Shown here: positions 7,029-35,976 of the stretch, in pieces
How the letters are laid out: the number at the start of each line of letters is the position of its first letter
Position numbering within the stretch: position 1 is the stretch's first letter
Origin: an uncultured Bacteroidia bacterium
Lineage (GTDB): Bacteria; Bacteroidota; Bacteroidia; Bacteroidales; F082
Reading direction: 5' to 3'
Assembly: GCA_902783365.1 (NCBI GenBank)
Contig: CACZQL010000064.1
Coordinates: forward strand, 1-36,466
Length of the DNA: 36,466 bases
The notes under the pieces: generated by a model
Database searches by the model: none
The model's input: only the letters and a program-made list of their open reading frames with translations
Told to the model about the DNA's origin: nothing
Made by a program: the position numbers and the translations under genes

Positions 7029-8348
<1,320 letters not shown>

Positions 8349-9575: not shown

Positions 9576-9604
9576 CAAGGCCTTGTCAGAAAGACAGGGC
9601 CTTG
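9576..9604. terminator. Inverted repeat between convergent genes, possible weak terminator
   Basis: CAAGGCCTTGTC (9576-9587) pairs with GACAGGGCCTTG (9593-9604) as a 12-bp stem with one G-T wobble and a 5-nt loop. It overlaps the last codons of the minus-strand giant gene. Neither side has a directly adjoining T-tract (a T8 run lies before it on the plus strand), so it is not a classical intrinsic terminator. Confidence 0.4.
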
Positions 9605-19716: not shown

Positions 19717-19789
19717 CTTAATACGATTAATTTGTCTGCAAAGAAACAAAAAAAGAAATCAATTTCAAAGCTTCTTTTCAAATAATCAC

Positions 19790-19848: not shown

Positions 19849-22401
19849 ATGAAAAAAAATATTTTTATTTTTATTATTATTTCATTAATAATAACAACAT
19901 CTTGTCAGAAACAAGAAAAACAGCTCTTCACTGAAAAAGAAGCCCTCGAATTCCTATACCAATACATGCCCTTAGGCGACAAGGTGGATTACACCGAGGA
20001 CTATTACCAGGAATGTGTGTCTTATGCTTTCCGGGCGAGGGAGGAGATGCCTTGGGGCAAGCGTGTCCCCGAGCGGGAGTTCAAGCATTTTGTGGTACCG
20101 GTGAGGGTGAACAACGAGAACCTCGACCGGTTCAGGGCCACCTATTATGAAGAACTCAAGGGACGGGTGAAGGACCTGAGTCTTTACGACGCCGTGCTCG
20201 AAGTGAACCACTGGTGCCATGAGCATGTGAACTACAAGGGCAGCGACAGCCGCACCTCCGCGCCGATGGCCACGATAAAAACCTCCTGGGGCCGTTGCGG
20301 TGAGGAATCGACCCTGCTGGTCACCGCCCTGCGCACCGTGGGCATCCCGGCAAGGCAAGTCTATACCCCACGCTGGGCCCATTGCGACGACAACCACGCC
20401 TGGGTAGAAGCTTGGGTGGACGGCCAATGGCACTTCCTCGGCGCCTGCGAGCCAGAACCCGTGCTCGACCTCGGATGGTTCAACGAACCCGCCTCGCGCA
20501 CCCTCCTTCTCCACACCCGCGTGTTCGGCGACTACGACGGCCCCGAAGAAGTCATCAGCCGCAACGACAACTTCACGGAAATCAACGTGGTGCAACAATA
20601 CGGCAAGACCGCCAAGACGACCTTCACCGTGGTGGACAAAGACGGGAAGCCACAAGCTAACCTCCCTGTGGAATTCAAAATCTATAACTACGCCGAGTTC
20701 TGCACCGTGGTCACCAAAACCACCGACGAGAACGGACAGACCTGGCTCACCTCCGGCTTGGGTTACATGATGGCCTACGCCGCCAAAGACGGACACTTCG
20801 GCTTCCAAGTCTTCAAAGGAGGGGAAAACGAAAACGTCACCATCACGCTCGACCACAAGGAAGGCTCCCTCGATGCCTTTGAATACGACATGGTACCGCC
20901 ATCGCCTTCCGCCCTCGCCCCGGAAGTCACCCCGGAAATGCGCGCCAACAACGACCGCCGCGTCGCCTACGAGGACTCGCTCCGCAACGCCTATATCGCC
21001 AACTGCAAAAAGGCCCAACAGGAACTCATCATGAACACCGGCAACAAGACCCTCTGCCGCCTCTACGAAAAAAGCTGGGGCAACTACCAAACCATCGCCG
21101 ATTTCATGCGATACGCCCAAGACCAACACCAGGAAATCAAAGCCGTGAACCTGTTGCAGAACGTCTCCGACAAGGACCTCCGCGACATCAGCCTGGAGGT
21201 ACTCAAAGACCATCTCGACCATACCCCCGACCTCACCTCGTCCATCATCTCCATGCCGCCCGACCTCTACGAGTCCTACATTCTCAACCCCCGCGTGAGC
21301 AATGAGATGATTGTGCCGTGGAGAAAAGACCTCAGCGAGTTCTTCCCCGAAGCCGAAAGACAACCATACCACGATAATCCCGCCTTGTTGGCGGATTGGA
21401 TCAGGGAAAACATCCAAGTGGATGACGACCTGAATCCCCAGCGCATCCCCATCTCGCCCTTGGGCGTGCTGAAAAGCCGCAAGGCCGACCGTCACTCGCG
21501 CGACATCCTTTTCGTGGCCATGGCCCGCAGCTTGGGAGTCGCCGCCCAAATCCACCCCGTCACCGGAAAGGTGCAATATTTCGCCAAAGAATGGACCTCG
21601 GTGGATTTTGAAGGAGCGCAACCCAGTGTCGCCGCCCTCGGCTACCTCGATCTGAGCTACAAGCCCACCACCGCCGTCGCAGACCCGAAGTATTACACGC
21701 ATTTCAGTATCAAGAAGTTCGACGGCAACAGCTTCCGTCTCCTGGCCTACGACGCCCAGGATCCCGGCATCGACGACGGCATGACCCTCTCCTCATTCGA
21801 GCATCCCACCCCCTTGGAGGCTGGCTATTACATCCTGACCTCAGGCACCCGCCTCGACGACGGCACCGCCTTGACACACAGCCAGTTCTTCACTATCAAA
21901 CCTGGAGAGACCCTCCCCATGGAACTGATTCTTAGAACCCCTGACAACAAGGTAGAACCCATTGGTGAATTCAATGCCGAGCAACGTTTCCTCGACCTCC
22001 AAACCCAACAGGAAGTCCAGTTGAAAGAAAGCGTGGGACAAGGCTACTACATCCTCGGCCTCCTCGACCAAGGCAGCGAGCCCACCACCCACGCCATGCA
22101 AGACATCTCCGCCTTCCGCAACGATTTTGAGCAACAACAAATCCCCCTGCTTCTCCTCTTCCCTTCCGATGAGGAATACCAGAAATTTATATTAAAGAAT
22201 TTTAACAATTTACCAAATCAAACACGCTACGGGCTGCATGGGGATGCCTTAAAAGATGCGCTTGTCACCAACCTCCGACTCAACCCGAACAGTCTGCCGA
22301 TTTTCATCATGGCCAACACCGATGGCGAGGTGGTGTTCGTCAAACAAGGATACACCATCGGATTGGGAGCACAGCTGCTGAAAACCCACTCCGAGCTGTA
22401 G
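19849..22401 (+). CDS. Transglutaminase-like domain lipoprotein
   Basis: An 850-residue protein with a lipoprotein signal peptide: MKKNIFIFIIISLIITTSC, lipidated Cys19 expected. The transglutaminase-like core is at about 115-205: SWGRCGEEST (nucleophile Cys150), then DDNHAWVEAW (His183). The segment that usually supplies the third triad residue (…DPT) reads FLGACEPEP, so the Asp is absent and Glu201 or another residue may substitute. A carboxypeptidase-regulatory-like beta-sandwich (about 255-340) and helical and beta regions follow. The end (LPIFIMANTDGEVVFVKQGY) looks like a thioredoxin-fold strand pair without a CxxC. Such proteins may be cysteine peptidases or amidases; the substrate is unknown. 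The first 30 or so codons are very AT-rich compared with the GC-rich body. It lies upstream of the peptidase operon on the same strand, but a 101-nt gap with its own promoter box separates them. Confidence 0.85.
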   Translation: MKKNIFIFIIISLIITTSCQKQEKQLFTEKEALEFLYQYMPLGDKVDYTEDYYQECVSYAFRAREEMPWGKRVPEREFKHFVVPVRVNNENLDRFRATYYEELKGRVKDLSLYDAVLEVNHWCHEHVNYKGSDSRTSAPMATIKTSWGRCGEESTLLVTALRTVGIPARQVYTPRWAHCDDNHAWVEAWVDGQWHFLGACEPEPVLDLGWFNEPASRTLLLHTRVFGDYDGPEEVISRNDNFTEINVVQQYGKTAKTTFTVVDKDGKPQANLPVEFKIYNYAEFCTVVTKTTDENGQTWLTSGLGYMMAYAAKDGHFGFQVFKGGENENVTITLDHKEGSLDAFEYDMVPPSPSALAPEVTPEMRANNDRRVAYEDSLRNAYIANCKKAQQELIMNTGNKTLCRLYEKSWGNYQTIADFMRYAQDQHQEIKAVNLLQNVSDKDLRDISLEVLKDHLDHTPDLTSSIISMPPDLYESYILNPRVSNEMIVPWRKDLSEFFPEAERQPYHDNPALLADWIRENIQVDDDLNPQRIPISPLGVLKSRKADRHSRDILFVAMARSLGVAAQIHPVTGKVQYFAKEWTSVDFEGAQPSVAALGYLDLSYKPTTAVADPKYYTHFSIKKFDGNSFRLLAYDAQDPGIDDGMTLSSFEHPTPLEAGYYILTSGTRLDDGTALTHSQFFTIKPGETLPMELILRTPDNKVEPIGEFNAEQRFLDLQTQQEVQLKESVGQGYYILGLLDQGSEPTTHAMQDISAFRNDFEQQQIPLLLLFPSDEEYQKFILKNFNNLPNQTRYGLHGDALKDALVTNLRLNPNSLPIFIMANTDGEVVFVKQGYTIGLGAQLLKTHSEL

Positions 22402-22470: not shown

Positions 22471-22478
22471 TATCTTTG
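22471..22478 (+). promoter_or_regulatory. Candidate -7 box for the peptidase operon
   Basis: TATCTTTG matches TAnnTTTG exactly, 24 nt before the start codon of the carboxypeptidase gene. No good TTTG is seen 19-20 nt upstream. Together with the terminator at 34939-34972 it would define one transcript of about 12.5 kb. Confidence 0.45.
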
Positions 22479-22502
22479 CGCATTTAAAAAAATAATAAAA
22501 AA

Positions 22503-24452
22503 ATGCGCACGGCATACATTCACAAAAATAAGATCCAAACCCTCCTGTTGCTGTGGCTGTTGACAGGCATAGGAGCTTCGCTCTATGGCCAAGACTTGAG
22601 CTTGTCAGGACAAGATTTGGACGCCTTGATGCGGATGCGCGAAGAATACTACTTCAGCGTAAAGGTAAGCGATTTCCATGAAATTCAAGAACTCAATCAT
22701 TTGGTTTCCGTTGACCAAGTGAGGGATTCCGAGGTGGTATGCTACGCCGATCCGGAACAATATCAGCTGCTTCTCAGCAAGGGATACTCCCCTACCCTGC
22801 TGACCCCGCCTTCGATGTTGGAAGAGGCCAGCATGTACGACGGTCGCAGCCGGGCCGGCTATGAATGGGACGCCTATCCCACCTATGAAGCTTACGAAAG
22901 CATGATGGAAGAATATGCCAGTACCCATCCCGACCGATGCACCCTGATGACCCTTGGCACTTTGGAGAGCGGGCGCAAGATCATGCTGGTGCGGCTCAAC
23001 AACGGTGTCACCGAAGGCAAACCCAAGTTCCTCTACACCTCCACCATGCACGGCGACGAGACCACGGGCTACATCCTCATGCTCCGCCTCATCGACCACC
23101 TGCTGACTTCCACCAGCTCCGAGGTGCAGTGCCTGATGGACAGTCTCGACATCTTCATCTGTCCCAACGCCAACCCCGATGGCACCTACTACGGCGGCAA
23201 CCACACCGTCAATGGGGCCAGGAGATACAACGCCAACAGGGTCGATTTGAACCGCAACTACAAGGACTTCGACGATGGTGACCATCCCGATGGCAAAGCC
23301 TACGCCCTTGAAACCCAGTGGTTCATGCAGTTGGCCTACGACTATCCCTTCACCATGGGCGCCAACTACCATGGAGGCGCCGAGGTGGCCAACTATCCTT
23401 GGGACACTTACCAGCCCGTCCATCCCGATGACGCCTGGTGGCGGTATGTCAGCCAACAATACGCGACGACGGTCAAGCAGCACAACAGCAGCTATTTCTG
23501 CAATCCCTCCTCCAGCGGCATCACCAACGGCTACGCCTGGTACACCATCACCGGCAGCCGTCAGGACTTCATGAACTATTTTGCCGAATGCCGTGAGCTC
23601 ACCATCGAGTGTTCCAACACCAAATGTCCCAATGCCAGCAACCTCCCCACCTACTGGACCTACAATAAGGAAGCCCTGTTGCAGTATATGCGCGAGGCCC
23701 TTCGGGGGCTTCATGGCGTGGTAAGAGACGCCTTTACGGGAGAAACGGTCCCCGGTGCCTCCATCGTCATCGAGAACCACGATGCTTTTGGCTCCTCCGT
23801 AAGCAGCCACAATGCCGGCGACTTCCACCGGCCCATCAAGGGAGGTACCTATACCCTGACCGTCAGCAAGGAAGGCTATCAGCCTTACACCCAATCTGTC
23901 ACCATTGCCGACGGGCAACGTCTCGACCTCGACATCGAGCTTATGCCCAGCAACCTTCAGCAGGCCACCTACCATCTCACCAATGGTTGGAACTGGTGGG
24001 TCCCCTCCCTTGACTTGGGTGAGGACCATGCGCTTCAAACTTTGGAACAAGCCTTGGGAAACCGAGCCAGCGTCATCAAATCGCAAAACGACGGCGTCGC
24101 CTATTACACCGAAGCCACCGGCTGGGTAGGCTCCTTGCAAAACCTTCACCTCAACCAGATGTACATGATTGAGACCAACCAGAACCTCGACCTCACCCTC
24201 ACCGGACTTCCCTTCGATCCTGAGACCTTAGACATCACCCTCCTTCCCGGGTGGAACTGGATGGTCTCGCCCGTCAGCCAAAACACCAGCATCAATGAGG
24301 CATTAACCCCATTTGAGCCACAGCCAGGAGACATCATCAAGTCGTACCGACGCTTCGCCATCTATATTGAAGGTTACGGCTGGTTCGGAACCCTTACGAC
24401 CCTGAAACCCGGGGAAGGCTATATGTATCACTCCAACACCGACGACAAATAA
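22503..24452 (+). CDS. Secreted M14 zinc carboxypeptidase, CPD/CPG70-like
   Basis: A 649-residue secreted metallocarboxypeptidase. A signal peptide covers about 1-30. The catalytic domain (about 125-400) has zinc ligands His183 and Glu186 in TMHGDE and His290 in ANYHGGAEVANYPWD, the substrate-carboxylate site NANRVDLNRNY (about 243-253), and the catalytic Glu369 in ECRELTIEC after GSRQDFMNYF. The HGGxxVANYPxD and ITGSRQD patterns match the carboxypeptidase N/E/D subfamily, which removes C-terminal Lys or Arg, as reported for P. gingivalis CPG70. A transthyretin-like regulatory domain (401-482) follows, as in that subfamily, then the double GWNW module (489-649) at the very end. No T9SS sorting domain is present, unlike CPG70. 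The next gene starts 16 nt downstream, so it is the first gene of an apparent operon with two gingipain-like proteases. Confidence 0.93.
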   Translation: MRTAYIHKNKIQTLLLLWLLTGIGASLYGQDLSLSGQDLDALMRMREEYYFSVKVSDFHEIQELNHLVSVDQVRDSEVVCYADPEQYQLLLSKGYSPTLLTPPSMLEEASMYDGRSRAGYEWDAYPTYEAYESMMEEYASTHPDRCTLMTLGTLESGRKIMLVRLNNGVTEGKPKFLYTSTMHGDETTGYILMLRLIDHLLTSTSSEVQCLMDSLDIFICPNANPDGTYYGGNHTVNGARRYNANRVDLNRNYKDFDDGDHPDGKAYALETQWFMQLAYDYPFTMGANYHGGAEVANYPWDTYQPVHPDDAWWRYVSQQYATTVKQHNSSYFCNPSSSGITNGYAWYTITGSRQDFMNYFAECRELTIECSNTKCPNASNLPTYWTYNKEALLQYMREALRGLHGVVRDAFTGETVPGASIVIENHDAFGSSVSSHNAGDFHRPIKGGTYTLTVSKEGYQPYTQSVTIADGQRLDLDIELMPSNLQQATYHLTNGWNWWVPSLDLGEDHALQTLEQALGNRASVIKSQNDGVAYYTEATGWVGSLQNLHLNQMYMIETNQNLDLTLTGLPFDPETLDITLLPGWNWMVSPVSQNTSINEALTPFEPQPGDIIKSYRRFAIYIEGYGWFGTLTTLKPGEGYMYHSNTDDK

Positions 24453-24468
24453 CACATATCATAAAACT

Positions 24469-27400
24469 ATGAAGAAAACACTTTTACTATTCGCATCCTT
24501 GTTCATGAGCCTTGCGGCAATCGCCCAGCTCGCAGGAAGTCCCACTTGGACCCGACTCCTCGACGAACAACCCTCGAAAGCCAGCGTTGAGCTGCTCAGC
24601 GCTTCAGACAGCAAGCTTCAGGTGCATCTTCAAGTGCCGGGGTTCTACGCCACCACCGTCGCCACCGACCGTGGCGAGGCACAGGTCATCACCCTCCCGA
24701 AAGCTCCGAACTGCTACCTCAGCGGAGAGCCCGACCTGCCCTTTGTGGTCATCCCCGCCATCATCGACGACCAGGCACAAATGGAAGTGCAGGTCGTGGA
24801 CGTCAAATACCAAGACTTCGAAGGCATGGAAATCGCCCCGTCGAAAGGCGACATCAGCCGCCAGCTGGACCCTGCCACAGTGCCTTACACTTACGGCACC
24901 AGCTACTATCAAGACGCCTTCACCCCCGCCCAGCAGGCCGACCTGTACGAACCGTACATCCTGCGTGACTTCAGGGGACAGAACATCGTGGTAAAACCTT
25001 TCGCCTACAACCCCGTCACCAAGGTACTTAGAGTCTATTACGACCTTGTTGTGGAGATGAAATCCACCGGCAAGGGTGGTGTGAACACCCTGAATCGAAA
25101 AAGCGGTTCCCTCAAGATGGATTCCGAGTTCAATGAGGTTTACAGCCGTCAGTTCATCAATTATCAGGAAGTCAAAAACCGTTACACCCCCATAGGCGAG
25201 AACGGAGCATTGCTCATCATCTGCCCCAGCTCCTACATGAGCACCATGCAGCCTTTCGTCACTTGGAAAATCACCATCGGACGACCCACCGAGATGGTAA
25301 GCACCAGCGTGACCGGCACCAGCGCTTCCAGCATCCAGAGTTACATCACCTCTTATTATAATAGCCATCCCAACCTGACCCACGTGCTGCTAGTGGGAGA
25401 CTACAACAGCATTCCGGGTGTGAGCATGAACAGTTTCGGCGACTACAGCGGCTATTCAGACCAGCGTTACGGACAGATTGTCGGCAACGACTATTACAAT
25501 GACATCTTCATCGGTCGTTTCTCCGCCAACAGCGCGGCGCAAGTCACCACCCAGGTAAACCGCACCATCACCTACGAACGCGACTTAAACACTTCCGCCA
25601 CATGGCTCAAGAAAGGCTTGGGAGTCTCCGCACAGGAGAACGGCAGCGGCCATAACGGCGAGGATGACTATGAACATATCGACCTCATCCGCAACGATTT
25701 GTTGGGTTACACCTACAGCACCGTCTTTCGTGAGTACTACGGCGTGAGCGGCATCACCTCCACCACGACCACCATCAGCAACGACATCAACGGCGGCGTA
25801 GGCATCATCAACTACTGCAACCACGGCAGCGAGACCTCGTGGCAGTCGCACAACTACTCCAACTCCCACGTCAACGCCCTGACCAACAGCAACAAGCTTC
25901 CCTTCATCATCTCCACCGCCTGCCTCAACGGCAAATACGACTACAGCGGTGGCGACTGCTTTGCCGAGACATGGATGCACGCCACCAACGGCTCCACCAC
26001 CACGCCCACCGGCGCCATCGGAGGCATCTTCTCCTATATCAGCCAACCTTGGATTCCGCCCATGGAAGGACAGGACGAGATGAACGACATCCTGGTGGAG
26101 AGCTACAACAACAACATCAAGCGCACCTTGGCCGGTGTGCTCACCAACGGCAACATGGCCGTCCTCGACTACAGCACCTCCAGTGCCGCCAGAGGCACCT
26201 ATTGCACCTGGAACATCTTCGGCGACCCCACCTTGACCCTTCGCACCAACACGCCTGCCGCCATGAGCGTCAACCATCCCGGCGTCATCAACCTCGGGCA
26301 GAACACCTATACCGTTCAGGTGCCCAACGGCAATGGTGCTTTGGCCACCATCAGCTATGAAAACGCCATCATGGGTTCCGCCACGGTGACCAACGGCGTG
26401 GCCAACATCACCCTCGACGAAGCCCCCGATGAGATTGGCGACCTCACCCTCTGCGTGTTCGGCTACAACAAAGTCACCTACCTTGGCACCATCAGCGTGG
26501 TGGGAGGCGCACAATACGGCATCACCTTAGGAAGCTGCGAGCACGGCACCTTCGACGCGACACCCAATCCCGCCTATGTCGGACAGACCGTCACCCTCAC
26601 CGCCCATCCCGACCCAGGCTATTGCCTCTTGGAATGGCAGGTTGCCACCAACGCCAAGAGCCAGAACATCCCCGTCACTAACAACCAGTTTGTGATGCCC
26701 GAAGGTGAAGTCACGGTGACCGCCACCTTCGTGGTGGGACATACTGTTACCCTCGCCGAGGTGGAACACGGCAGCATCACTGCCAATCCGACTACCGCTT
26801 TGGGAGGCACCACCATCACCCTGACCGCCAGCCCCACCACGGGTTACACCCTCGGCGACTGGCTCGTCTATAAGACCGGTGACCTCAGCAGCACCCTCAC
26901 CGTCACCGACAACCAGTTTGTGATGCCCGACTACGACGTCACCGTGACGGCTTTCTTCGTCCTTCCCGCCAGCGGCAACACCACCATCGGCTCGGGTTCA
27001 GGAACCACCAACGGAAACTACTTGCCCACCAGCGATTTTTACAACTATTCGCTCACGCAACAGATCTACACCCCCGCCGAGATGGGCTCGGCTGGAACCA
27101 TCACCGCCATCAGCTTCTATTACAACTCGACGACGGCATCCAAGCCCAGGAATCTCACCATCTATATGACGAACACCAACAGTTCCACCCTCAGCGCTTG
27201 GGTCGCACAATCGTCCAGCAACATTGTCTATTCCGGCAGCGTGACCTTTACCAATGGTTGGAACGCCATTACGCTAACCACCCCCTTCGAGTATAACGGC
27301 ACGAGCAAAGTCTTACTGACCGTTGACGACAACACGGGTAGTTGGGGTACCAACAGCTACTTCCGCACCTATTCCACCAGTGCCAACAGAGCACTTTATT

Positions 27401-29820
27401 ATAGAGACGACAACAACAATCCCTCAGCCACCGGCAGCAATTCGGTTTCTCCCACCCAGTCGCAGTACAACAGCCAGATCATCATCACCAAGATGACGGC
27501 TAGCGCTGCCAGTCTGGCGGTCACGGAGGAATCCCTCAGCGGTTTCAGTTATGGGGAAGGACAAGGTCCGTCAGCAGCCCAGTCGTTTGACCTCATGGGA
27601 TATGTCGCCGAAAACATCGTGGTGACGGCCCCTGCCGACTACGAAGTCAGCACCACGGCGACCGGCACTTACAGCAACACCCTCACCCTTCCCGCACCAG
27701 GCGGCAACGGTGGCTTGGTCACCGCCAGCGTCTATGTCCGCTTAAAAGCCGACCTGGCCATGGGTGACTACAACGGGGAGATTTTGACCGTCAGTTGCGG
27801 CGAGGTCAGCAAGAGCGTGACCCTCAACGGCACCGTGCTCAACAGTTCCCATTGGACCTTGGTGCCGGGACTTTACGCCGACAACATGACTTTGTTGGGC
27901 GTCATCTATCTCGACGGCGAGGAGCAGCGCAGCACCGAGCTGGAAGTCGGGGCTTTCTGTGGCGACGAGATCCGCGGTACCGGCAAGGCCACTTACTGCC
28001 CGCCCGTTGACCGCTACATCCTGCCTTTGATCGTCTATGGCAACGTCAATGACGCCATCACCTTCAAGCTTTACGACCCGAGTGTGGAGGAAGAATACGA
28101 TTCCGACCCCGGCCTGGTCCTGTCGTTCACCACCGACGGTTACGGCAGCATCACCCAGCCCGAGGTACTCAGCTTCTTCACCACCGCTCCCTCGACGGAA
28201 CCTTTGATGGTGACCGTCACCGCCGACCCGACCACGGTTTGTGCCGAGGAGAGCGTTAGCTTGACCGCCATCGCCACAGAGGGCACGGGGAACTACACCT
28301 ATACCTGGAGTCCCGCCGACCTTATCGCCGAGGGACAAGGTACCGCCAACGCCACAACCGCCGCACTTACCTCGAACGCCGAGTTCACCTGCACCGTCAG
28401 CGACGGCATTGAGACCGTTGAAGCCACGGTGCAAGTGACCGTGAAAGCCTTGCCCATCACGGGTGCGGGACAAGACCAAACAATCAGCTACGGCGCCACG
28501 GCCCACCTTGGGGCCTACAACGCCGGGGTGGGCGCCGTCTATTCCTGGGAGCCCGCCGAACTCATCCAAGGCAACGCCCAGCAACGCTTTGTCACCACCG
28601 TGAACCTCTATGCCACCCAGACCTTCACCCTCACGGTGACCCGCAACGGGTGCGAGGTCGTTGACGAAATGACGGTGTTCGTGACTCCTCCCACGCAAAC
28701 CATCGCCCTCGAAAACGGATGGAAGTGGATGTCCGTCTATATGGAATGCGACGAGACCACCCTTAACAGCCTCAAAAACAGCATCAGCACCTCCAACGCC
28801 AGCCAAGCCCTCATCAAGTCGCAGACCGGCTCCTTGATATTTGAGAACGGCAACTGGTTCGGCAACAGCCTGACCGCCCTTGAAAACGAGAATATGTATA
28901 TGGTACAGCTTGACCAGAACCTCAACGTCACCCTCAACGGTAGCGTCGCCAACCCCGAAGCGCACCCCATCACACTCAACATGGGATGGAAGTGGATCAG
29001 CTTCCTCTCCATGACCCCCATGAGCCTCGGCGACGCCCTGTCGGGCATCACGCCCAATGCCGATGACGTCATCAAGGGACAAGACGGATTCTCCTCCTAC
29101 GACGGCGCCTCATGGGTAGGCAGTCTGACGAACCTGGAGCCTGGCAAAGGCTACATGTACCAGAACAACGGCGATGCCAACCTCACCCTTGTCTATCCTA
29201 CCGCGGGGAAGGGCGTCGTCGAAGAGAGCAGCGCCGAGCTTCATTGGAAGAACGATCCCTATCAGTTCGCCCACAACCTGAGCATGATGGTGAGCCTCGA
29301 AGGCGTCACCCTCAGCGAGGGCAGCCACGAAATCGGCGCCTTTGTCAACGGCGAATGTCGCGGCAGCGCCCTGGTGCAGCAGGTGAACAACCAATTCATG
29401 GCCTTCCTCACCGTCACTGGAGAACCTGGTGACATGGTGAGCTTCAAGGTGTATGACGTGAACACCCACGAGGAGTGGGAAGGCATCGAAGAGCGCCTCA
29501 GCTTCAGCAGCGACGACGTCCTTGGCAGCCTGCGTCAACCGTTCATGTTGCATCTCGACGCCAACGGCCTCTCCGCCCTGCACGGACAAGTCTCCATCTT
29601 CCCCAACCCGACCCAAGCCGGCACGGAGCTCCACCTCGTGGTTCCCAGCCATGACCAGACCCTCACCGTGGAAGTCTTCGACCTGTTAGGGGCCAGCGTC
29701 TATACCGGCACCACCCACGACGGCATCCTGCGCGGCATGAGGAAGAGCGGCATCTACACCCTCAAGGCCACCGACCTCGAAGGCAACACTTATTATGGCA
29801 AACTCATCATCAACGACTGA
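24469..29820 (+). CDS. Arg-gingipain-like C25 cysteine protease, T9SS type A sorted
   Basis: A 1,783-residue secreted protease. Signal peptide 1-20; C25 propeptide 21-238; mature start predicted at Arg238|Tyr239 (KNR|YTPIGENG), matching the RgpB mature N-terminus YTPVEEKENG. The catalytic domain (239-595) has His452 in NHGSETSW and Cys485 in STACLNGKYD. Asp400 in NGEDDYEH aligns with RgpB Asp163, the Arg-specificity residue, and PMEGQDEMN is conserved. Then come an Ig domain (596-680), two InlB-like repeats (681-832), a jelly-roll module (836-1010), a BACON-like region (to 1122), a GAFCGDEIRG module (1125-1240), two PKD-like domains (1245-1406), the double GWNW module (1410-1575), a GAFVNGECRGSA module (1585-1700) and a T9SS type A sorting domain (1705-1783, IFPNPTQAG to end). 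It follows the carboxypeptidase by 16 nt. Role: extracellular cleavage after Arg, inferred. Confidence 0.93.
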   Translation: MKKTLLLFASLFMSLAAIAQLAGSPTWTRLLDEQPSKASVELLSASDSKLQVHLQVPGFYATTVATDRGEAQVITLPKAPNCYLSGEPDLPFVVIPAIIDDQAQMEVQVVDVKYQDFEGMEIAPSKGDISRQLDPATVPYTYGTSYYQDAFTPAQQADLYEPYILRDFRGQNIVVKPFAYNPVTKVLRVYYDLVVEMKSTGKGGVNTLNRKSGSLKMDSEFNEVYSRQFINYQEVKNRYTPIGENGALLIICPSSYMSTMQPFVTWKITIGRPTEMVSTSVTGTSASSIQSYITSYYNSHPNLTHVLLVGDYNSIPGVSMNSFGDYSGYSDQRYGQIVGNDYYNDIFIGRFSANSAAQVTTQVNRTITYERDLNTSATWLKKGLGVSAQENGSGHNGEDDYEHIDLIRNDLLGYTYSTVFREYYGVSGITSTTTTISNDINGGVGIINYCNHGSETSWQSHNYSNSHVNALTNSNKLPFIISTACLNGKYDYSGGDCFAETWMHATNGSTTTPTGAIGGIFSYISQPWIPPMEGQDEMNDILVESYNNNIKRTLAGVLTNGNMAVLDYSTSSAARGTYCTWNIFGDPTLTLRTNTPAAMSVNHPGVINLGQNTYTVQVPNGNGALATISYENAIMGSATVTNGVANITLDEAPDEIGDLTLCVFGYNKVTYLGTISVVGGAQYGITLGSCEHGTFDATPNPAYVGQTVTLTAHPDPGYCLLEWQVATNAKSQNIPVTNNQFVMPEGEVTVTATFVVGHTVTLAEVEHGSITANPTTALGGTTITLTASPTTGYTLGDWLVYKTGDLSSTLTVTDNQFVMPDYDVTVTAFFVLPASGNTTIGSGSGTTNGNYLPTSDFYNYSLTQQIYTPAEMGSAGTITAISFYYNSTTASKPRNLTIYMTNTNSSTLSAWVAQSSSNIVYSGSVTFTNGWNAITLTTPFEYNGTSKVLLTVDDNTGSWGTNSYFRTYSTSANRALYYRDDNNNPSATGSNSVSPTQSQYNSQIIITKMTASAASLAVTEESLSGFSYGEGQGPSAAQSFDLMGYVAENIVVTAPADYEVSTTATGTYSNTLTLPAPGGNGGLVTASVYVRLKADLAMGDYNGEILTVSCGEVSKSVTLNGTVLNSSHWTLVPGLYADNMTLLGVIYLDGEEQRSTELEVGAFCGDEIRGTGKATYCPPVDRYILPLIVYGNVNDAITFKLYDPSVEEEYDSDPGLVLSFTTDGYGSITQPEVLSFFTTAPSTEPLMVTVTADPTTVCAEESVSLTAIATEGTGNYTYTWSPADLIAEGQGTANATTAALTSNAEFTCTVSDGIETVEATVQVTVKALPITGAGQDQTISYGATAHLGAYNAGVGAVYSWEPAELIQGNAQQRFVTTVNLYATQTFTLTVTRNGCEVVDEMTVFVTPPTQTIALENGWKWMSVYMECDETTLNSLKNSISTSNASQALIKSQTGSLIFENGNWFGNSLTALENENMYMVQLDQNLNVTLNGSVANPEAHPITLNMGWKWISFLSMTPMSLGDALSGITPNADDVIKGQDGFSSYDGASWVGSLTNLEPGKGYMYQNNGDANLTLVYPTAGKGVVEESSAELHWKNDPYQFAHNLSMMVSLEGVTLSEGSHEIGAFVNGECRGSALVQQVNNQFMAFLTVTGEPGDMVSFKVYDVNTHEEWEGIEERLSFSSDDVLGSLRQPFMLHLDANGLSALHGQVSIFPNPTQAGTELHLVVPSHDQTLTVEVFDLLGASVYTGTTHDGILRGMRKSGIYTLKATDLEGNTYYGKLIIND

Positions 29821-29841
29821 AAACAATAAAAACACCATATC

Positions 29842-32800
29842 ATGAAAAAAACCTTTGTATTATTCCTTCTCCTGACCCTCTGCGCCGCCACCTTCGCGCA
29901 GGGCAAGATTCAGCTTCGTTCCATTGACAAAGCCGAGTGTGTCAAGAGCGACTATCAAAGTTTGAAAGCGACCTTCTCTTTCTCTGGCCTTGAAGCCAAT
30001 GAGAGAATGACGCCCCGCGGCGCTTTCTCGGCGCTTGCCATGTCCAACACCGTCATCGGCGGTAACGAGGGCGACCCCGAAATCCCCGTCGTGAACGAGC
30101 TCATCGCCATTCCTTTCGGGGCCACGCCAAGCATCCGTGTGACCCATTTTAGCGTCACCGACTACTCGCTCGACGAATACGGTATCCACACCCTGGTGCC
30201 ACGCCAGCCTTCTCTGAGGAAGGACCAGAAGCCCGAAGAGGCACCCTTTGTGTATAACGCAGCCGCCTACCAAACCCGTGTACTGGCCAACGAGCCCAAA
30301 GCTGTGGTCAGCGTCGAAGGCGTGATGCGCGGCGTGCAGCTCGGCAAGATGACCATCGAACCGGTCAGCTACAACCCTGCAAGCAACACCTTGCGTGTGT
30401 TCAACGACATTGAGGTGGAGGTCCGCTTTGAAGGCGCCGATGCCCAAGCCACCGAAAAGAGGCTGATTGACACCTACAGTCCCTACTTCGATGTCATCTA
30501 TAAGCAATTGTTCAACGGCAGGGCCGTGTTAGACGCTTACACCGATCATCCCGACCTCTACACCACACCGGTAAAGATGATGGTCATCACCACTTCAACC
30601 TACGCCAACAGCGAGGCCTTCCAGAGCTGGTTGACTTGGAAGAAGCAGAAAGGCATCTATGTGGAGGTCTTCACCACCGCCCAAACCGGAACGACGTCGT
30701 CCAGCATCAAGTCGTTCATCCAGACCCAATACAACCAGAACCACCCGACGTTCCTGGTCATCGTGGGCGACACCGACGCCATCACTTACAGCTTGAGCAG
30801 CTCAACCACCAGCAAGGTCACCGACTTGTATTATTCCTCCGTCGATGGCGACATCTTCCCCGACCTTTTCCTCAGCCGTATGCCTGTCTCCTCCACCACG
30901 GAACTTGGCAACCTCCTGAGCAAGATCCTGACCTACGAACAATACACCATGGCCGACCCCTCCTACCTCGACAATGTTCTGTTGATTGCTGGCTCCGATG
31001 CCACTTGGAATCCGAAAGTGGGACAGCCCACCATCAACTATGCCGCCGACAACTATTTCAACACCGCCCACGGTTTCAACCATGTGTATAAATACCTCAG
31101 CTCCTACACCAACTGCTACAGCAACATGAACACAGGCATCGGTTTTGCCAACTACACCGCCCACGGCGGCGAGACTGGCTGGTCGGGGCCTTCGTTCTCA
31201 GTGAGCGACGCCAACAGCTTGACCAACAACGACAAATATTTCTGGGCCATGGGCAACTGCTGTTTGGCTGCCAACTGGGGCTACAATGGCACTTGCTTGG
31301 CCGAGGCGTTGTTGAGATCCGCCAACAAAGGTGCCTTCGGCTACATCGGTTCCTGCCCTGAGACCTATTGGTGGGAGGATTATTATTTTGGTGTGGGTGC
31401 CACCACGGTCATCAACACCACCCCCGCCATGTCGGCCACTCAGACTGGTGCCTACGACGGCATGTTCATGGACGACATGTACAACACCTTGAACTCCGTG
31501 CCTTTCCTGGGCAACGTAGCCGTGACCTACGCCCATGCCAACAACTTCACTGGCAGCGTCTCCGACACCTATTATTGGGAAGCCTACCACTGCCTGGGCG
31601 ATGGTTCCGTGATGCCCTACCACGTCAATCCCACGACCAACACGGTGAGCCATGCCTCCACCTTGGGTTTCGGGTTGTCCTCCTTCACTGTCAGTGCCGA
31701 CCCAGGTTCCTACGTGGCCCTTACCAAAGACAACGAGATCCTTGGTGTGGCCCAAGTAGGCTCCACGGGTATTGTGGACGTGCCGATCACCCCCGTCAAC
31801 ACCCTTGGCGAGGTGTTGGTGGTCGTCACCCGCAACCAGCGCCAGCCGTACATGCAGACGATCCAATGCGTCTCCCTCGATGGAGCCTTTGTCAGCGTGG
31901 ACAGCTTCACTCCCACTTCCGCCCATGTCGGCGACAACACCGACCTGAGCATCACCTTTAAGAATTTGGGCACCCAGGCCACCACAGGCACCACCACCGT
32001 CACTTTGACCCCTGGCAGCACCAATGTCACGGTCGTCGCCGGCACCAAGACCTTCGGCGCCTTGGCCTCCAACGCCACTACTACGGTAAGCGGTTTCCGT
32101 TTCCGCATCAACGAAGGTGTGGCCGATGGCACGCCCGTCACCCTGCACTACACGGCGGTCAATGGCAGCGACACCTGGGAAGGCAACCTCATCATCACCG
32201 CCCAGGAAGCCGTCCTCGAATACCAAGGCATGACCTGGAACGGCAGTTTCACTCCAGGCGAGACGTTGACGCTTTCCGCCACGTTTAAGAACACGGGCCA
32301 TTACCAAGCCACCAACAGCGCCATCACCTTGAGCACGACCAGCAGCTATGTCACCATCAACACCCCGTCGGTGACCGCTGGCACCCTTGAGGTGGGACAA
32401 GTAGTCACTTACGACTTCAGCGTCACCATCGACGCCAACTGTCCAGAAACCGCCCAGCTGCCCGTCACCTTCACGATGACCGCCAATGGCGGCCTCAGCG
32501 CGCAAGGTACCGAGACCCTGAAAAACAGCTGCTTGCTTTACTTCAATTTGTCCGACTCTTACGGCGATGGCTGGAACGGCGCCACGCTGACGGTGTCGTT
32601 CAGCGACGGTTCACCCTCGCAGGGGCTTACCATAGCATCGGGAAGCTCCGCCAACTATACGCTTGAGGTCGGCAACGGTGTCCACGTCACTTTGACTTGG
32701 GGCCAAGGCAGCTACGACAGCGAATGTTCCTTCACCGTGAGCTACGAAGGCGACTTCATCATCTACCAGTCGAGTGGCACTCCCAGCGCTGGTGTCCTGT

Positions 32801-34917
32801 ATCAGTTCGACTGCAACTGCGCCATTCTCTCGCAGAGCTTTATCATCACTGCCACCTCAAGCAACCCGAGCCTTGGCACCGTAAGCGGTGGCGGCGAATT
32901 CAGTTTCGGACAGACCTGCACCCTCACCGCAACGCCCGCCGAGGGTTATCACTTCACCGGCTGGACCCAAAACGGCCAGCTGGTGTCTTCCGACAACCCC
33001 TACTCCTTCATCGTGAACAGCGACATGGACCTGACAGGCAACTTCGCCCAAGGTCTGGTGATTGGCAGCGGCACCGCCACCAACTCCAATCTGCCCAGCT
33101 ACAACTACTACAATTACTCCTTGACGGAGCAGATTTACACCGCCTCGGAACTTGGCGCAGCCGGAAACATCACCGCCATCTCCTTCTATAACGCCGGGGC
33201 CGAAAAGACCCGCAGTTATGACATTTACCTGAAAGCCACCACCAAAAGCACCTTCTCGGGCAGCACCGACTGGATTGCCGTCAATTCCTCCAACAAGGTA
33301 TTCAGCGGCTCCGTCACCATGACCCCCAACACCTGGACGCTCATCAGTTTCGACACACCGTTTGAATACGACGGCAACACCAACCTCGTCCTGGTCGTTG
33401 ACGACAACACGGGAGCATACACCAGTTCTCCCCACATGACTTGCCGGGTCTTCGATGCCGCCAGCCAGGCCATCCGCATTTATGACGACAACACCAACTT
33501 TAACCCGAGCAGTCCTTCCTCCTACAACGGCACGGTGCTTGGTGTAAAGAACCAGCTGACCATCAGCAAAGAGGCCGCAACGCCCCATTACATCATCAAC
33601 GTCTCCATGTCACCCGCCGGCGCTGGCACCGTGACGGGCGGCGGCACCTATAACGAGGGCGCTACCGTCACCCTGACCGCCACCCCCGCCACCGACTTTG
33701 AGTTCACCGGTTGGGAGGAAAACGGCAATATCGTCAGCAACAGTCCTACCTACACCTTCACCGCCCAAGTCAACAGGAACATCGTGGCCACCTTCGTCCA
33801 GATCTTCCACCAGACACAAACCCTGCCTGAAGGCTGGGAGTGGTTCTCAAGTTACCTTGAGATTGGCGGCCACGAAGGCTTGCTCCAGCTGGAACAGGCG
33901 TTGACGGGCAACGGCTCCTCCATCGTCTCGCAGGCCAATGGCTTCGCGATTTTCAACGGCACGCAATGGTCTGGCTCACTCCAAAGCCTCAGCCTTGAGC
34001 AGATGTACCAGATCAACAATCAAGGCGGTGGAGGTCTCAGCCTCTCGGGAACCTTGGCACAACCGGAGAATCACCCCATCACCTTGCATCCAGGCTGGAA
34101 CTGGATCGGTTATCCCATGAATGAGAACATGAGCGTCAACACCGCTTTGGCCAACTACACGCCTCACGACAACGACATCATCAAGTCGCGCGAGCTCTTC
34201 AGCACCTACATCTCCGGCTACGGATGGTGGGGCGGCTTGAATGTCCTCCATGCAGGTGAAGGTTTCATGTATCGTTCCACCGCCACCGACAACACCACTT
34301 TGGTCTATCACGCCGGTGCCAGGATCCCTGCCGAAAACGAATCCGCCGACCTCCATTGGACACCCGTTTCGTCCCCGTTTGTCAACAACGCCACTTTGAT
34401 GCTCACCCTTGATGAGACCGTCCTTTCCCTCTCCGAAGACATCGAGATCGGTGCGTTTGTCGGAGGTGAATGCCGTGGCAGCGCCAAGATGTTGTATGTG
34501 GAGCCAGCGGGCAGATACATGGCCTTCCTCACGGTATATGGCGAGCTCACCGACGAGCTTAGCTTCATGGTCCGCCAAGGCGAGAACACCTACCTAGCCA
34601 ACGAGCGGGTGCAATATGCCGACAACCTGGTGTTGGGCAGCGTCAAGACGCCCTTCACGCTCAGCATCAATCCTATTAAACAGCTGACGGTCTATCCCAA
34701 CCCTGTGTCTGTGAACACAGCTTTCCGTATGGAGCTACCTTCCGACATCGACCTTAGCGACTGCCGTCTTGAGGTTTACAACGCCTTGGGCGTCATGGTC
34801 CGTGCGGAGCGTTACAACGCCTCCGGTATCCAAGGTCTCAGCAAGGCTGGCGTCTATACTTTGAAAGTTACCGACATCAACGGCAACACCGTCATCGGAC
34901 GGTTGATAGTCCAATAA
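29842..34917 (+). CDS. Lys-gingipain-like C25 cysteine protease, T9SS type A sorted
   Basis: A 1,691-residue secreted protease, the closest match in my memory being P. gingivalis Kgp. Signal peptide 1-20; propeptide to about 227-230, followed by DAYTDHPDLYTTPV, matching the Kgp mature start DVYTDHGDLYNTPV. The catalytic triad aligns as Asp386 (Kgp 388, AGSDATWN), His441 (Kgp 444, NYTAHGGE) and Cys474 (Kgp 477, GNCC). Lys-pocket residues Thr439, Asn472 and Asp513 (Kgp Thr442, Asn475, Asp516, in WEDYY) are kept. After the Ig domain (601-685) come two CARDB-like domains (686-897), a DSYGDGWNG module (898-995), an InlB-like repeat, a jelly-roll module (1072-1245), a second InlB-like repeat, the double GWNW module (1325-1490), a GAFVGGECRGSA module (1500-1610) and a T9SS type A sorting domain (1613-1691). 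It starts 21 nt after the Rgp-like gene. Confidence 0.93.
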   Translation: MKKTFVLFLLLTLCAATFAQGKIQLRSIDKAECVKSDYQSLKATFSFSGLEANERMTPRGAFSALAMSNTVIGGNEGDPEIPVVNELIAIPFGATPSIRVTHFSVTDYSLDEYGIHTLVPRQPSLRKDQKPEEAPFVYNAAAYQTRVLANEPKAVVSVEGVMRGVQLGKMTIEPVSYNPASNTLRVFNDIEVEVRFEGADAQATEKRLIDTYSPYFDVIYKQLFNGRAVLDAYTDHPDLYTTPVKMMVITTSTYANSEAFQSWLTWKKQKGIYVEVFTTAQTGTTSSSIKSFIQTQYNQNHPTFLVIVGDTDAITYSLSSSTTSKVTDLYYSSVDGDIFPDLFLSRMPVSSTTELGNLLSKILTYEQYTMADPSYLDNVLLIAGSDATWNPKVGQPTINYAADNYFNTAHGFNHVYKYLSSYTNCYSNMNTGIGFANYTAHGGETGWSGPSFSVSDANSLTNNDKYFWAMGNCCLAANWGYNGTCLAEALLRSANKGAFGYIGSCPETYWWEDYYFGVGATTVINTTPAMSATQTGAYDGMFMDDMYNTLNSVPFLGNVAVTYAHANNFTGSVSDTYYWEAYHCLGDGSVMPYHVNPTTNTVSHASTLGFGLSSFTVSADPGSYVALTKDNEILGVAQVGSTGIVDVPITPVNTLGEVLVVVTRNQRQPYMQTIQCVSLDGAFVSVDSFTPTSAHVGDNTDLSITFKNLGTQATTGTTTVTLTPGSTNVTVVAGTKTFGALASNATTTVSGFRFRINEGVADGTPVTLHYTAVNGSDTWEGNLIITAQEAVLEYQGMTWNGSFTPGETLTLSATFKNTGHYQATNSAITLSTTSSYVTINTPSVTAGTLEVGQVVTYDFSVTIDANCPETAQLPVTFTMTANGGLSAQGTETLKNSCLLYFNLSDSYGDGWNGATLTVSFSDGSPSQGLTIASGSSANYTLEVGNGVHVTLTWGQGSYDSECSFTVSYEGDFIIYQSSGTPSAGVLYQFDCNCAILSQSFIITATSSNPSLGTVSGGGEFSFGQTCTLTATPAEGYHFTGWTQNGQLVSSDNPYSFIVNSDMDLTGNFAQGLVIGSGTATNSNLPSYNYYNYSLTEQIYTASELGAAGNITAISFYNAGAEKTRSYDIYLKATTKSTFSGSTDWIAVNSSNKVFSGSVTMTPNTWTLISFDTPFEYDGNTNLVLVVDDNTGAYTSSPHMTCRVFDAASQAIRIYDDNTNFNPSSPSSYNGTVLGVKNQLTISKEAATPHYIINVSMSPAGAGTVTGGGTYNEGATVTLTATPATDFEFTGWEENGNIVSNSPTYTFTAQVNRNIVATFVQIFHQTQTLPEGWEWFSSYLEIGGHEGLLQLEQALTGNGSSIVSQANGFAIFNGTQWSGSLQSLSLEQMYQINNQGGGGLSLSGTLAQPENHPITLHPGWNWIGYPMNENMSVNTALANYTPHDNDIIKSRELFSTYISGYGWWGGLNVLHAGEGFMYRSTATDNTTLVYHAGARIPAENESADLHWTPVSSPFVNNATLMLTLDETVLSLSEDIEIGAFVGGECRGSAKMLYVEPAGRYMAFLTVYGELTDELSFMVRQGENTYLANERVQYADNLVLGSVKTPFTLSINPIKQLTVYPNPVSVNTAFRMELPSDIDLSDCRLEVYNALGVMVRAERYNASGIQGLSKAGVYTLKVTDINGNTVIGRLIVQ

Positions 34918-34938
34918 TCCTACACATCTGTATTATTG

Positions 34939-34972
34939 AAAAAAGTGGTCCATCATTGGGCCACTTTTTTTT
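34939..34972 (+). terminator. Intrinsic terminator of the peptidase operon
   Basis: AAAAAAGTGGTCC (34939-34951) pairs with GGGCCACTTTTTT (34958-34970) across a 6-nt loop, with one G-U wobble, and continues into a run of eight T (34965-34972). It starts 21 nt after the stop codon of the Lys-gingipain-like gene. The A-tract on the other side would let it work in both directions, but only rightward genes are present here. Confidence 0.85.
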
Positions 34973-34983
34973 ATGCCTTAGGA

Positions 34984-35062: not shown

Positions 35063-35479
35063 ATGACAAGATCCAAAACAGAATCCATAGCGAATCCTGT
35101 GGCTGAAGCCCGGCGCTATGTGCAGAACGCGAAAGAGTTATTAGAAGAAAAAGCTCGTCTCGATGTCGAGACGCAGGCTTATCAAGACCGGAAGTACATC
35201 CGCATGGCCGGCAACACGTTGTGGAACGGGGTGTTGCTCATCCTCGACGCAACGTTTCAACTTGAAAACAAGAAAGGCCGGCTCAGCATCTACGATTACA
35301 GAAACGTTGTCGGACAACGCGACAAGAAGCTACTCGACATGATCAACCGAGGCTACGACACCATGCATCTGGCCATGGGGTATGACGGCAACCAAAGCAA
35401 AGTCACTTGCCTTGACGGCCTCAAGCTCGCCAACGACATTATCGACCGCTGTGAGGTCATGCTGACCAAGGCAGCGTAA
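35063..35479 (+). CDS. DUF5618-like small helical protein, copy 1
   Basis: A 138-residue cytosolic protein without a signal peptide or membrane segment, mostly alpha-helical. Features: AEARRYVQNAKELL (14-27), the core LWNGVLLILDATFQLENKKG (53-72), DYRNVVGQRDKKLLDMINRGYDTMHLAMGYDGN (78-110) and a last helix with DIIDRCEVML. I recognise the pattern as the DUF5618 family of Bacteroidales from memory; function is unknown. An R-x5-H string (Arg96-His102, RGYDTMH) resembles the HEPN RNase motif, but this may be chance. It is the first of three tandem copies, 45 nt before copy 2, and is almost identical to copy 2 at the DNA level over roughly codons 39-110. Confidence 0.8.
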   Translation: MTRSKTESIANPVAEARRYVQNAKELLEEKARLDVETQAYQDRKYIRMAGNTLWNGVLLILDATFQLENKKGRLSIYDYRNVVGQRDKKLLDMINRGYDTMHLAMGYDGNQSKVTCLDGLKLANDIIDRCEVMLTKAA

Positions 35480-35524
35480 TAGCAGTTTCCATAGAATCCA
35501 AATCATCAATTTAACGAATCAACC

Positions 35525-35941
35525 ATGTCCATTTTCAAGAAAGAACCCATAGCGGATCCTGTGGCAGAAGCCCGGCGCTATGTGCAGAACGCAAAAGAGC
35601 TGTTAGATGGAAAAGCTCGTCTCGACACCGAGACGCAGGCTTATCAAGACCGGAAGTACATCCGTATGGCCGGCAACACGTTGTGGAACGGGGTGTTGCT
35701 CATCCTCGACACAACGTTTCAACTTGAAAACAAGAAAGGTCGGCTCAGCATCTACGATTACAGAAACGTTGTCGGACAACGCGACAAGAAGCTACTCGAC
35801 ATGGTCAACCGGGGCTACGACACCATGCATCTGGCCATGGGGTATGACGGCAACCTTGAGAAAGCCATCAGCAGTGCCGGCATACGCATTGCCAACGACA
35901 TCATCGACCGCTGTGAGGTCATGCTGGTCAAAGCAGCGTAA
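35525..35941 (+). CDS. DUF5618-like small helical protein, copy 2
   Basis: 138 residues. The central part (about 39-110) is nearly identical in DNA and protein to copy 1, while the first 25 codons (MSIFKKEPIADPVAEARRYV) are nearly identical to copy 3. It therefore looks like a mosaic of its neighbours, made by recent duplication plus recombination or gene conversion. The R-x5-H string RGYDTMH is kept. The intergenic sequences after copies 1 and 2 also resemble each other (AGCAGTTYCCATAGAA), which supports duplication of a unit that included the spacer. The gap to copy 3 is 35 nt. Function is unknown. Confidence 0.8.
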   Translation: MSIFKKEPIADPVAEARRYVQNAKELLDGKARLDTETQAYQDRKYIRMAGNTLWNGVLLILDTTFQLENKKGRLSIYDYRNVVGQRDKKLLDMVNRGYDTMHLAMGYDGNLEKAISSAGIRIANDIIDRCEVMLVKAA

Positions 35942-35976
35942 AAGCAGTTCCCATAGAACAGTAAAACGAAACAACC

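What the first reader, a model, noticed from the sequence alone, without database searches (positions are those of the whole stretch)
22503..34917. An operon pairing Arg- and Lys-gingipain-like proteases with a basic-residue carboxypeptidase
Three secreted peptidases lie head to tail with gaps of 16 and 21 nt, a -7 box in front (22471) and a strong terminator behind (34939-34972). In P. gingivalis the known equivalents (rgpA/rgpB, kgp, cpg70) are, as I recall, at separate loci. Here the genes for cutting after Arg, cutting after Lys and trimming the exposed C-terminal Lys/Arg appear to be one unit. That would give co-regulated, stepwise release of peptides and free basic amino acids at the cell surface. 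The proteins share accessory modules with each other and with the giant protein nearby.
Basis: partly seen in the sequence, partly recalled or inferred. Interest (0 to 1): 0.8.

Follow-up and report, generated by a model that had tools for sequence, protein, structure and literature searches.

The report
Gingipain–carboxypeptidase operon in gut Bacteroidales
An uncultured gut-type bacterium carries, in one gene cluster, two protein-cutting enzymes like those of the gum pathogen Porphyromonas gingivalis (one for arginine, one for lysine) and a third that should trim the ends they leave, and the same trio recurs in relatives from animal guts.

Summary
22503-34917 holds three head-to-tail genes: an M14 carboxypeptidase, an RgpB-like and a Kgp-like C25 protease, gaps 16 and 21 nt, a -7 box in front, a strong terminator behind. 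Catalytic and pocket residues fit Arg, Lys and C-terminal Lys/Arg specificity. The propeptide inhibitory loop gives a further test: at the position I equate with RgpB Arg126, 62 of 62 Rgp-type proteins carry Arg and 111 of 111 Kgp-type carry Lys. The genome belongs to the genus of 'bacterium F082' (gut MAGs). The trio recurs: 10 loci strictly adjacent, 2 with one extra ORF, order varied. In 74 genomes of other families with both genes listed, none lay within 50 kb on one contig. Beyond the finding: the propeptide/enzyme junction holds Arg in 103 of 108 Kgp-type zymogens but Lys in 36 of 60 Rgp-type ones, suggesting cross-activation; and 50 of 57 module-bearing C25/M14 proteins end in an unnamed 'GWNW' module without the type IX signal. 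Not shown: co-transcription, activity, surface location. The carboxypeptidase lacks a recognised type IX signal. A new variant of a known kind.

The parts
22471..22479 (+). Bacteroidota-type -7 box TATCTTTGC, start of the putative operon
   Evidence: same kind of box in the TG-M14 gap of 6 relatives
22503..24452 (+). P0001: M14 N/E-type carboxypeptidase, predicted C-terminal Lys/Arg specific; M14 22896-23672, CarboxypepD_reg 23709-23942, GWNW module 23958-24449; no type IX sorting domain found
24469..29820 (+). P0002: Rgp-type (Arg-specific) C25 protease zymogen; propeptide to 25182, catalytic 25183-26241, Ig 26254-26493, YN module 26974-27498, GWNW module 28693-29205, type A sorting domain 29596-29814
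29842..34917 (+). P0003: Kgp-type (Lys-specific) C25 protease zymogen; propeptide to 30531, catalytic 30532-31614, Ig 31630-31866, YN module 33052-33570, GWNW module 33808-34314, type A sorting domain 34690-34914
34936..34974 (+). intrinsic terminator hairpin with U tract
   Evidence: -20.5 kcal/mol, z -6.66
19849..22401 (+). P0004: transglutaminase-core, lipoprotein-like gene, conserved neighbour upstream; separated by a promoter-like box that recurs in relatives
9586..19749 (-). P0005: giant surface-type protein (InlB-like repeats, beta helix) ending in the GWNW module; linked to the finding by the module only

Best explanation
This is an operon for extracellular breakdown of protein at basic residues in a gut-type Bacteroidales bacterium. 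P0002 and P0003 are made as zymogens. In each, a propeptide loop offers the residue the enzyme itself prefers (Arg in P0002, Lys in P0003). In this window both propeptide/enzyme junctions hold Arg (R238 before Y239 in P0002; R227, four residues before D231, in P0003). So the Arg protease can free itself and then free the Lys protease. In most relatives the Arg-protease junction is Lys, so the two would need each other. The M14 enzyme removes the C-terminal Lys or Arg that both proteases leave, on dietary or host peptides and on the proteases' own processed chains. Shown by sequence: gene order, recurrence, catalytic and pocket residues, loop and junction residues. Inferred: activity, activation order, co-expression, place of action.
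For: PDB matches: P0002 to RgpB 5.4e-98 with RgpB prodomain 2.6e-36; P0003 to Kgp 2.3e-135 with Kgp prodomain 5.7e-49; P0001 to carboxypeptidase gp180 residues 503-882 (duck CPD domain II), 6.6e-51. Kgp residues D388, T442, H444, C477, W513, D516 in 112 of 112 Kgp-type domains; RgpB D163, H211, C244, W284, M288 all in 56 of 64 Rgp-type domains, the window's included. M14 zinc, catalytic and basic-pocket residues in 25 of 25 distinct domains. Inhibitory-loop residue Arg in 62 of 62 Rgp-type and Lys in 111 of 111 Kgp-type. Junction of Kgp-type: Arg within 7 aa in 103 of 108, Lys in 6 of 108; one per 70% cluster, Arg 20 and Lys 0 of 21, against Arg 2 and Lys 13 of 21 in the seven residues before. 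Recurrent trio. dN/dS 0.06-0.10 for the Kgp domain against three relatives, with synonymous sites near saturation. Type IX translocon SprA present.
Against: No transcript or activity data. The carboxypeptidase carries no known type IX signal. Rgp-type junction is Arg in 19 of 60 and neither in 5 of 60, so cross-activation is not universal, and in this window only the Rgp-to-Kgp direction applies. 8 of 64 Rgp-type domains depart from the pocket pattern. Only 15 of 74 same-genus genomes show M14 near a C25 gene, read by eye from listings that the tool had cut; contig ends hide some. A second gingipain cluster in the same genome (C95) showed no carboxypeptidase in the 20 kb read, so the three are not obligate partners. 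Types were assigned by similarity to the window's two domains, so pattern counts are not fully independent.
Confidence: 0.75

Rival explanations
1. The carboxypeptidase is mainly a maturation factor: it trims Lys/Arg left on the gingipain chains after self-processing, and feeding on peptides is incidental. (This overlaps with the best explanation, which allows both.)
For: CPG70 of P. gingivalis removes C-terminal Arg and Lys during gingipain processing (PMC5445135 section 15; PMC10319874 passages). The genes sit side by side in recurrent units. Lysine 5,6-aminomutase was not found in the window's genome.
Against: I recall no report that trimming is needed for gingipain activity. The genome keeps two more M14 genes elsewhere (C32, C71), so a similar enzyme is available without the operon.
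Confidence: 0.35
2. Chance clustering: a recombination-prone region of surface-protein genes with shared modules, with no joint function.
For: Order differs between relatives (M14-Rgp-Kgp, Kgp-M14-Rgp, M14-Kgp-Rgp). Shared modules and a swapped Kgp core show recombination. Most same-genus genomes examined did not show the linkage (15 of 74 did).
Against: In the ten strictly adjacent cases M14, Kgp-type and Rgp-type stay on one strand with gaps of 6-87 nt while order changes; low dN/dS; a promoter-like box before M14 in 7 of 7 TG-M14 gaps; no linkage within 50 kb in 74 genomes of other families with both genes listed.
Confidence: 0.15
3. One or both C25 enzymes cut after other residues.
For: C25 is broad: 14 hits in this genome, several lacking the gingipain pocket pattern.
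Against: The window's two domains keep the full pocket patterns, and the inhibitory-loop residue agrees with the type in 173 of 173 proteins.
Confidence: 0.05
4. Assembly chimera of a metagenome-assembled genome.
For: 154 contigs, 84.4% complete.
Against: The same trio is in separate assemblies of relatives.
Confidence: 0.02

Closest known systems
RgpB / RgpA gingipains of Porphyromonas gingivalis (MEROPS C25)
   Same: Propeptide, C25 and Ig domains; D163, H211, C244, W284, M288; Arg in the inhibitory loop; Arg at the junction in this window
   Different: Next to a Kgp-type gene and an M14 gene; other accessory modules; in 36 of 60 Rgp-type relatives Lys at the junction
Kgp (Lys-gingipain)
   Same: Kgp propeptide and catalytic domain; all six key residues; Arg shortly before the mature start
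   Different: Operon partner of an Rgp-type gene; GWNW module; 22 of 28 module-bearing Kgp-type relatives end in the module, with no type IX sorting match
CPG70 and metazoan carboxypeptidases D, M, N (M14 N/E type)
   Same: Zinc site, catalytic residues, basic pocket Asp and Gln, CarboxypepD_reg domain
   Different: In the operon; ends in the GWNW module; no sorting domain, whereas CPG70 is a type IX cargo (PMC5445135 section 15). CPG70 itself was not aligned here
Gingipain-like peptidase activity of Prevotella ruminicola B(1)4 (Madeira, Peng and Morrison 1997)
   Same: Rumen Bacteroidota; gingipain-like activity and ammonia production (title only, seen in the reference list of PMC5911377)
Type IX sorting domains A, B and C (PMC10202324 passages)
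   Same: P0002 and P0003 carry type A
   Different: The GWNW module matched none of them in 50 of 50 members scanned, yet takes the C-terminal place in 50 of 57 module-bearing C25/M14 proteins

Membership tests
Arg-gingipain (C25, RgpB type) | C25 propeptide, catalytic and C-terminal Ig domains | tested here: met
Arg-gingipain (C25, RgpB type) | Asp163, His211, Cys244, Trp284, Met288 | tested here: met
   roles of Asp163 and Trp284 in PMC4357240 passages, which print the histidine as 221 where I count 211; Met288 recalled
Arg-gingipain (C25, RgpB type) | Arg in propeptide inhibitory loop (Arg126; position equated by counting in the alignment) | tested here: met
Arg-gingipain (C25, RgpB type) | cuts only after Arg | not testable with these tools
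   needs an assay
Lys-gingipain (Kgp type) | Kgp-type propeptide and catalytic domain | tested here: met
Lys-gingipain (Kgp type) | D388, T442, H444, C477, W513, D516 (labels recalled, positions counted) | tested here: met
Lys-gingipain (Kgp type) | cuts only after Lys | not testable with these tools
   needs an assay
M14 N/E-type basic carboxypeptidase (CPG70-like) | zinc ligands, Arg145, Glu270, basic-pocket Asp and Gln (CPD-2 Asp192 and Gln257; labels recalled) | tested here: met
M14 N/E-type basic carboxypeptidase (CPG70-like) | type IX cargo with C-terminal sorting domain, as CPG70 | tested here: not met
   so it should act like CPG70 but is not filed as CPG70
Type IX secretion cargo, type A | TIGR04183 domain at the C-terminus of P0002 and P0003 | tested here: met
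   32.6 and 34.4 bits against cut-off 23; translocon SprA in the genome
Operon | co-transcription across both junctions | not testable with these tools
   no RNA data

The most novel reading that the evidence does not exclude
In this genus the GWNW module is itself a C-terminal sorting or anchoring signal that has taken over from the type IX type A domain. It carries gingipains, carboxypeptidases and giant adhesin-like proteins out of the cell. Of 180 distinct complete C25/M14 proteins, 50 end within 25 residues of the module and 0 of 50 match TIGR04183 at E 0.1; 7 have the module plus a tail and 7 of 7 match; 123 lack the module and 115 of 123 match. In the window's genome 14 of 21 uncut module proteins end with it. 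Against: in the 28 module proteins of other families for which loci were given (best matches only), the module is followed by 159-396 residues, with a sorting-domain match in 22 of 28, so the terminal place is derived, and mere loss of the signal is possible.
Probability: 0.25. Interest if true: 0.75.

Novelty: new variant of a known kind. Interest (0 to 1): 0.58.

Why it matters
Gingipains are known above all as virulence factors of one oral pathogen; a genus comparison found them only in P. gingivalis and P. gulae among Porphyromonas (PMC4700951 passages). Here Arg and Lys gingipain types look like general equipment of a genus of gut Bacteroidales: Kgp-type hits in 74 of 75 genomes, Rgp-type in 72 of 74. 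Linked to a basic carboxypeptidase, they are a candidate route for protein breakdown in the gut of ruminants, where it feeds ammonia loss. The loop and junction residues make a clear, testable model for how paired zymogens switch each other on.

Tried and rejected
Whether the window's carboxypeptidase was recruited separately from the housekeeping-type M14 gene: a tree without outgroup suggested it, but one search found the operon-type rows, window included, already on one side of a branch (88/83), and with an outgroup the window row is the deepest branch of that group with weak support 80/64; grouping it with the housekeeping-type genes is not rejected either (p-AU 0.116). Left open.

Whether the GWNW module is tied to type IX secretion: 43 of 43 module-positive genomes have SprA and 0 of 15 SprA-negative genomes have the module, but 242 of 257 genomes have SprA, so the test is weak.

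Lysine fermentation as the purpose: lysine 5,6-aminomutase found in 6 of 13 same-genus genomes examined, not in the window's own, G142 or G144. Inconclusive, since several are incomplete.

A named Pfam or NCBIfam identity for the GWNW module: none convincing among 50 members scanned (best Pfam match NfeD, 2.3e-4, in 3 of 50). Its fold could not be predicted.

Linkage in other genera of the same family was not tested: the listing was cut before their rows.

Literature: searches listed no paper whose title or shown abstract describes such an operon; I read passages of a few and one section, and most subscription journals are not held.

Full report
What is there. The window is contig C64 of a 2.75 Mb, 84.4% complete genome in 154 contigs. 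Three genes run head to tail: P0001 (22503-24452), P0002 (24469-29820) and P0003 (29842-34917), with gaps of 16 and 21 nt. A TATCTTTGC box starts at 22471, and a hairpin of -20.5 kcal/mol with a U tract follows at 34936-34974. Upstream lies a transglutaminase-core gene, P0004 (19849-22401), on the same strand, 101 nt before P0001.

Gene identities. P0001 has M14 and CarboxypepD_reg domains; its best solved relative is carboxypeptidase gp180 (CPD) domain II, 6.6e-51. P0002 is nearest RgpB, mature domain 5.4e-98 and prodomain 2.6e-36, and much less like Kgp, 1.3e-16. P0003 is nearest Kgp, mature 2.3e-135 and prodomain 5.7e-49, and less like RgpB, 1.4e-23 at best. P0002 and P0003 carry type A type IX sorting domains, 32.6 and 34.4 bits against a cut-off of 23; P0001 has none at E 0.01 or, for its last 180 residues, at E 0.1.

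Specificity. Key columns were read from alignments. P0002 has D163, H211, C244, W284, M288 in RgpB numbering; P0003 has D388, T442, H444, C477, W513, D516 in Kgp numbering. I counted positions in the alignments. The roles of Asp163 and Trp284 are in PMC4357240 (passages; it prints His221 where I count 211); Met288, the Kgp labels and the CPD-2 labels are recalled. Across distinct domains, 112 of 112 Kgp-type and 56 of 64 Rgp-type keep the full pattern; the other 8 Rgp-type keep His and Cys but change Met288, and in 2 of them also Asp163. All 25 distinct M14 domains, the window's included, keep zinc, catalytic and basic-pocket residues. The types were assigned by similarity to the window's two domains, so these counts are not fully independent of the sorting.

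A second line on specificity is the propeptide loop. In RgpB the prodomain has autoprocessing sites at Arg126 and Arg229 (PMC4357240). At the position I equate with Arg126, 62 of 62 Rgp-type proteins have Arg and 111 of 111 Kgp-type proteins have Lys; the Kgp prodomain of P. gingivalis also shows Lys there in the alignment.

Activation. The solved mature chains begin at the Tyr matching P0002 Y239 and the Asp matching P0003 D231. In Kgp-type zymogens, the last seven residues before that Asp hold Arg in 103 of 108 and Lys in 6 of 108. In Rgp-type zymogens, the residue before the Tyr is Lys in 36, Arg in 19 and other in 5 of 60. With one member per 70% cluster: Kgp-type Arg 20 and Lys 0 of 21, while the seven residues before hold Arg in 2 and Lys in 13 of 21; Rgp-type Lys 12, Arg 4, other 1 of 17. 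So the Lys enzyme should be released by an Arg cut, and the Arg enzyme in most relatives by a Lys cut. In this window the Arg enzyme has Arg and can free itself. In P. gingivalis RgpB both sites are Arg.

Relatives. The window's genome shares its genus code with G142, whose contig C1 matches 'bacterium F082' LPNG01000001.1 in length and position of the hit. Among the 80 named Kgp-type loci, the titles that name a source give rumen, other stomachs and hindgut of sheep, goat, yak, buffalo, deer and cattle, and horse faeces. Strictly adjacent M14, Kgp-type and Rgp-type genes on one strand occur in the window, G083, G104, G109, G112, G113, G114, G118, G142 and L146, with gaps of 6-87 nt; G135 and L108 have one extra ORF inside. 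The G genomes are of the window's genus by code; the genus of L146 and L108 was not looked up. Orders vary: M14-Rgp-Kgp, Kgp-M14-Rgp, M14-Kgp-Rgp, M14-Kgp-Kgp-Kgp-Rgp. From the listings, read by eye, 15 of 74 same-genus genomes have M14 within about 12 kb of a C25 gene on the same strand; the listings were cut and contigs end near several M14 genes, so this is a lower bound. In other families, 74 genomes had both genes among the listed rows and none had them within 50 kb on one contig; the closest was 52.9 kb, and many pairs lay on separate contigs, where distance is unknown. Other genera of the same family were not tested. In 7 of 7 transglutaminase-M14 gaps there is a TAnnTTTGC box, so the unit probably starts at M14.

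Other gingipain settings: a cluster Kgp-Rgp-Rgp without carboxypeptidase (L140, L160 and others; C95 in this genome) and Kgp-type genes without C25 neighbours.

C-terminal ends. Of 180 distinct complete C25/M14 proteins of at least 500 aa, 50 end with the GWNW module and 0 of 50 match TIGR04183; 123 lack the module and 115 match; 7 have module plus tail and 7 match. Incomplete ORFs and ones with identical last 150 residues were dropped before counting. In the window's genome, of 21 uncut module proteins 14 end with it, 4 continue into a sorting domain and 3 have other tails; 2 cut rows were dropped. In 28 module proteins of other families (the best matches, for which loci were given) the module is followed by a tail, with a sorting-domain match in 22 of 28. 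The terminal position is therefore probably derived in this genus.

Recombination. G104 and G083 operons are 92-95% identical in DNA, except codons about 238-1127 of the Kgp-type gene, where identity falls to 64-71%. The propeptide and C-terminal end are kept and the enzyme core is replaced. Both cores keep the Kgp pattern.

Known and new. In P. gingivalis the genes are apart (PG2024, PG0506, PG1844, PG0232; PMC5445135 passages), and CPG70 trims C-terminal Arg and Lys during gingipain processing (section 15). A gingipain-like activity of Prevotella ruminicola with a role in ammonia production was reported in 1997 (title in the reference list of PMC5911377). What I found no report of, in searches, is the linked trio; the junction residues and the module-for-signal exchange were not searched for by name.

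Verdict. The finding is real, recurrent and functionally coherent. It is a new arrangement of known enzyme families rather than a new kind of system.

Noticed in passing
L106:10026-12693 against L179: Core of the Kgp-type gene swapped between two otherwise 92-95% identical operons, propeptide and C-terminal end kept.
   Followed up: partly
window 9586-19749: Giant 3387-aa protein with six InlB-like repeat matches and beta-helix stretches, ending in the GWNW module with no sorting domain found.
   Followed up: partly
window 35063-36396: Three similar-sized ORFs in a row (138, 138, 139 aa) with a 462-base tandem repeat, 90% matches, over 35080-36050; the first matches DUF5618.
   Followed up: no
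window 19849-22401: Transglutaminase-core gene upstream of the M14 gene in the window and six relatives.
   Followed up: partly
window 8182-8250 and 1670-1728: Seven-base tandem repeats, the first inside the ORF at 7029-8348.
   Followed up: no
own genome C95:6518-19446 (L044): Second gingipain cluster Kgp-Rgp-Rgp without carboxypeptidase in the 20 kb read; 14 C25 hits in the genome in all.
   Followed up: partly
43 of 257 Bacteroidales genomes: GWNW module, no convincing Pfam match, present in genomes from many families of the order.
   Followed up: partly
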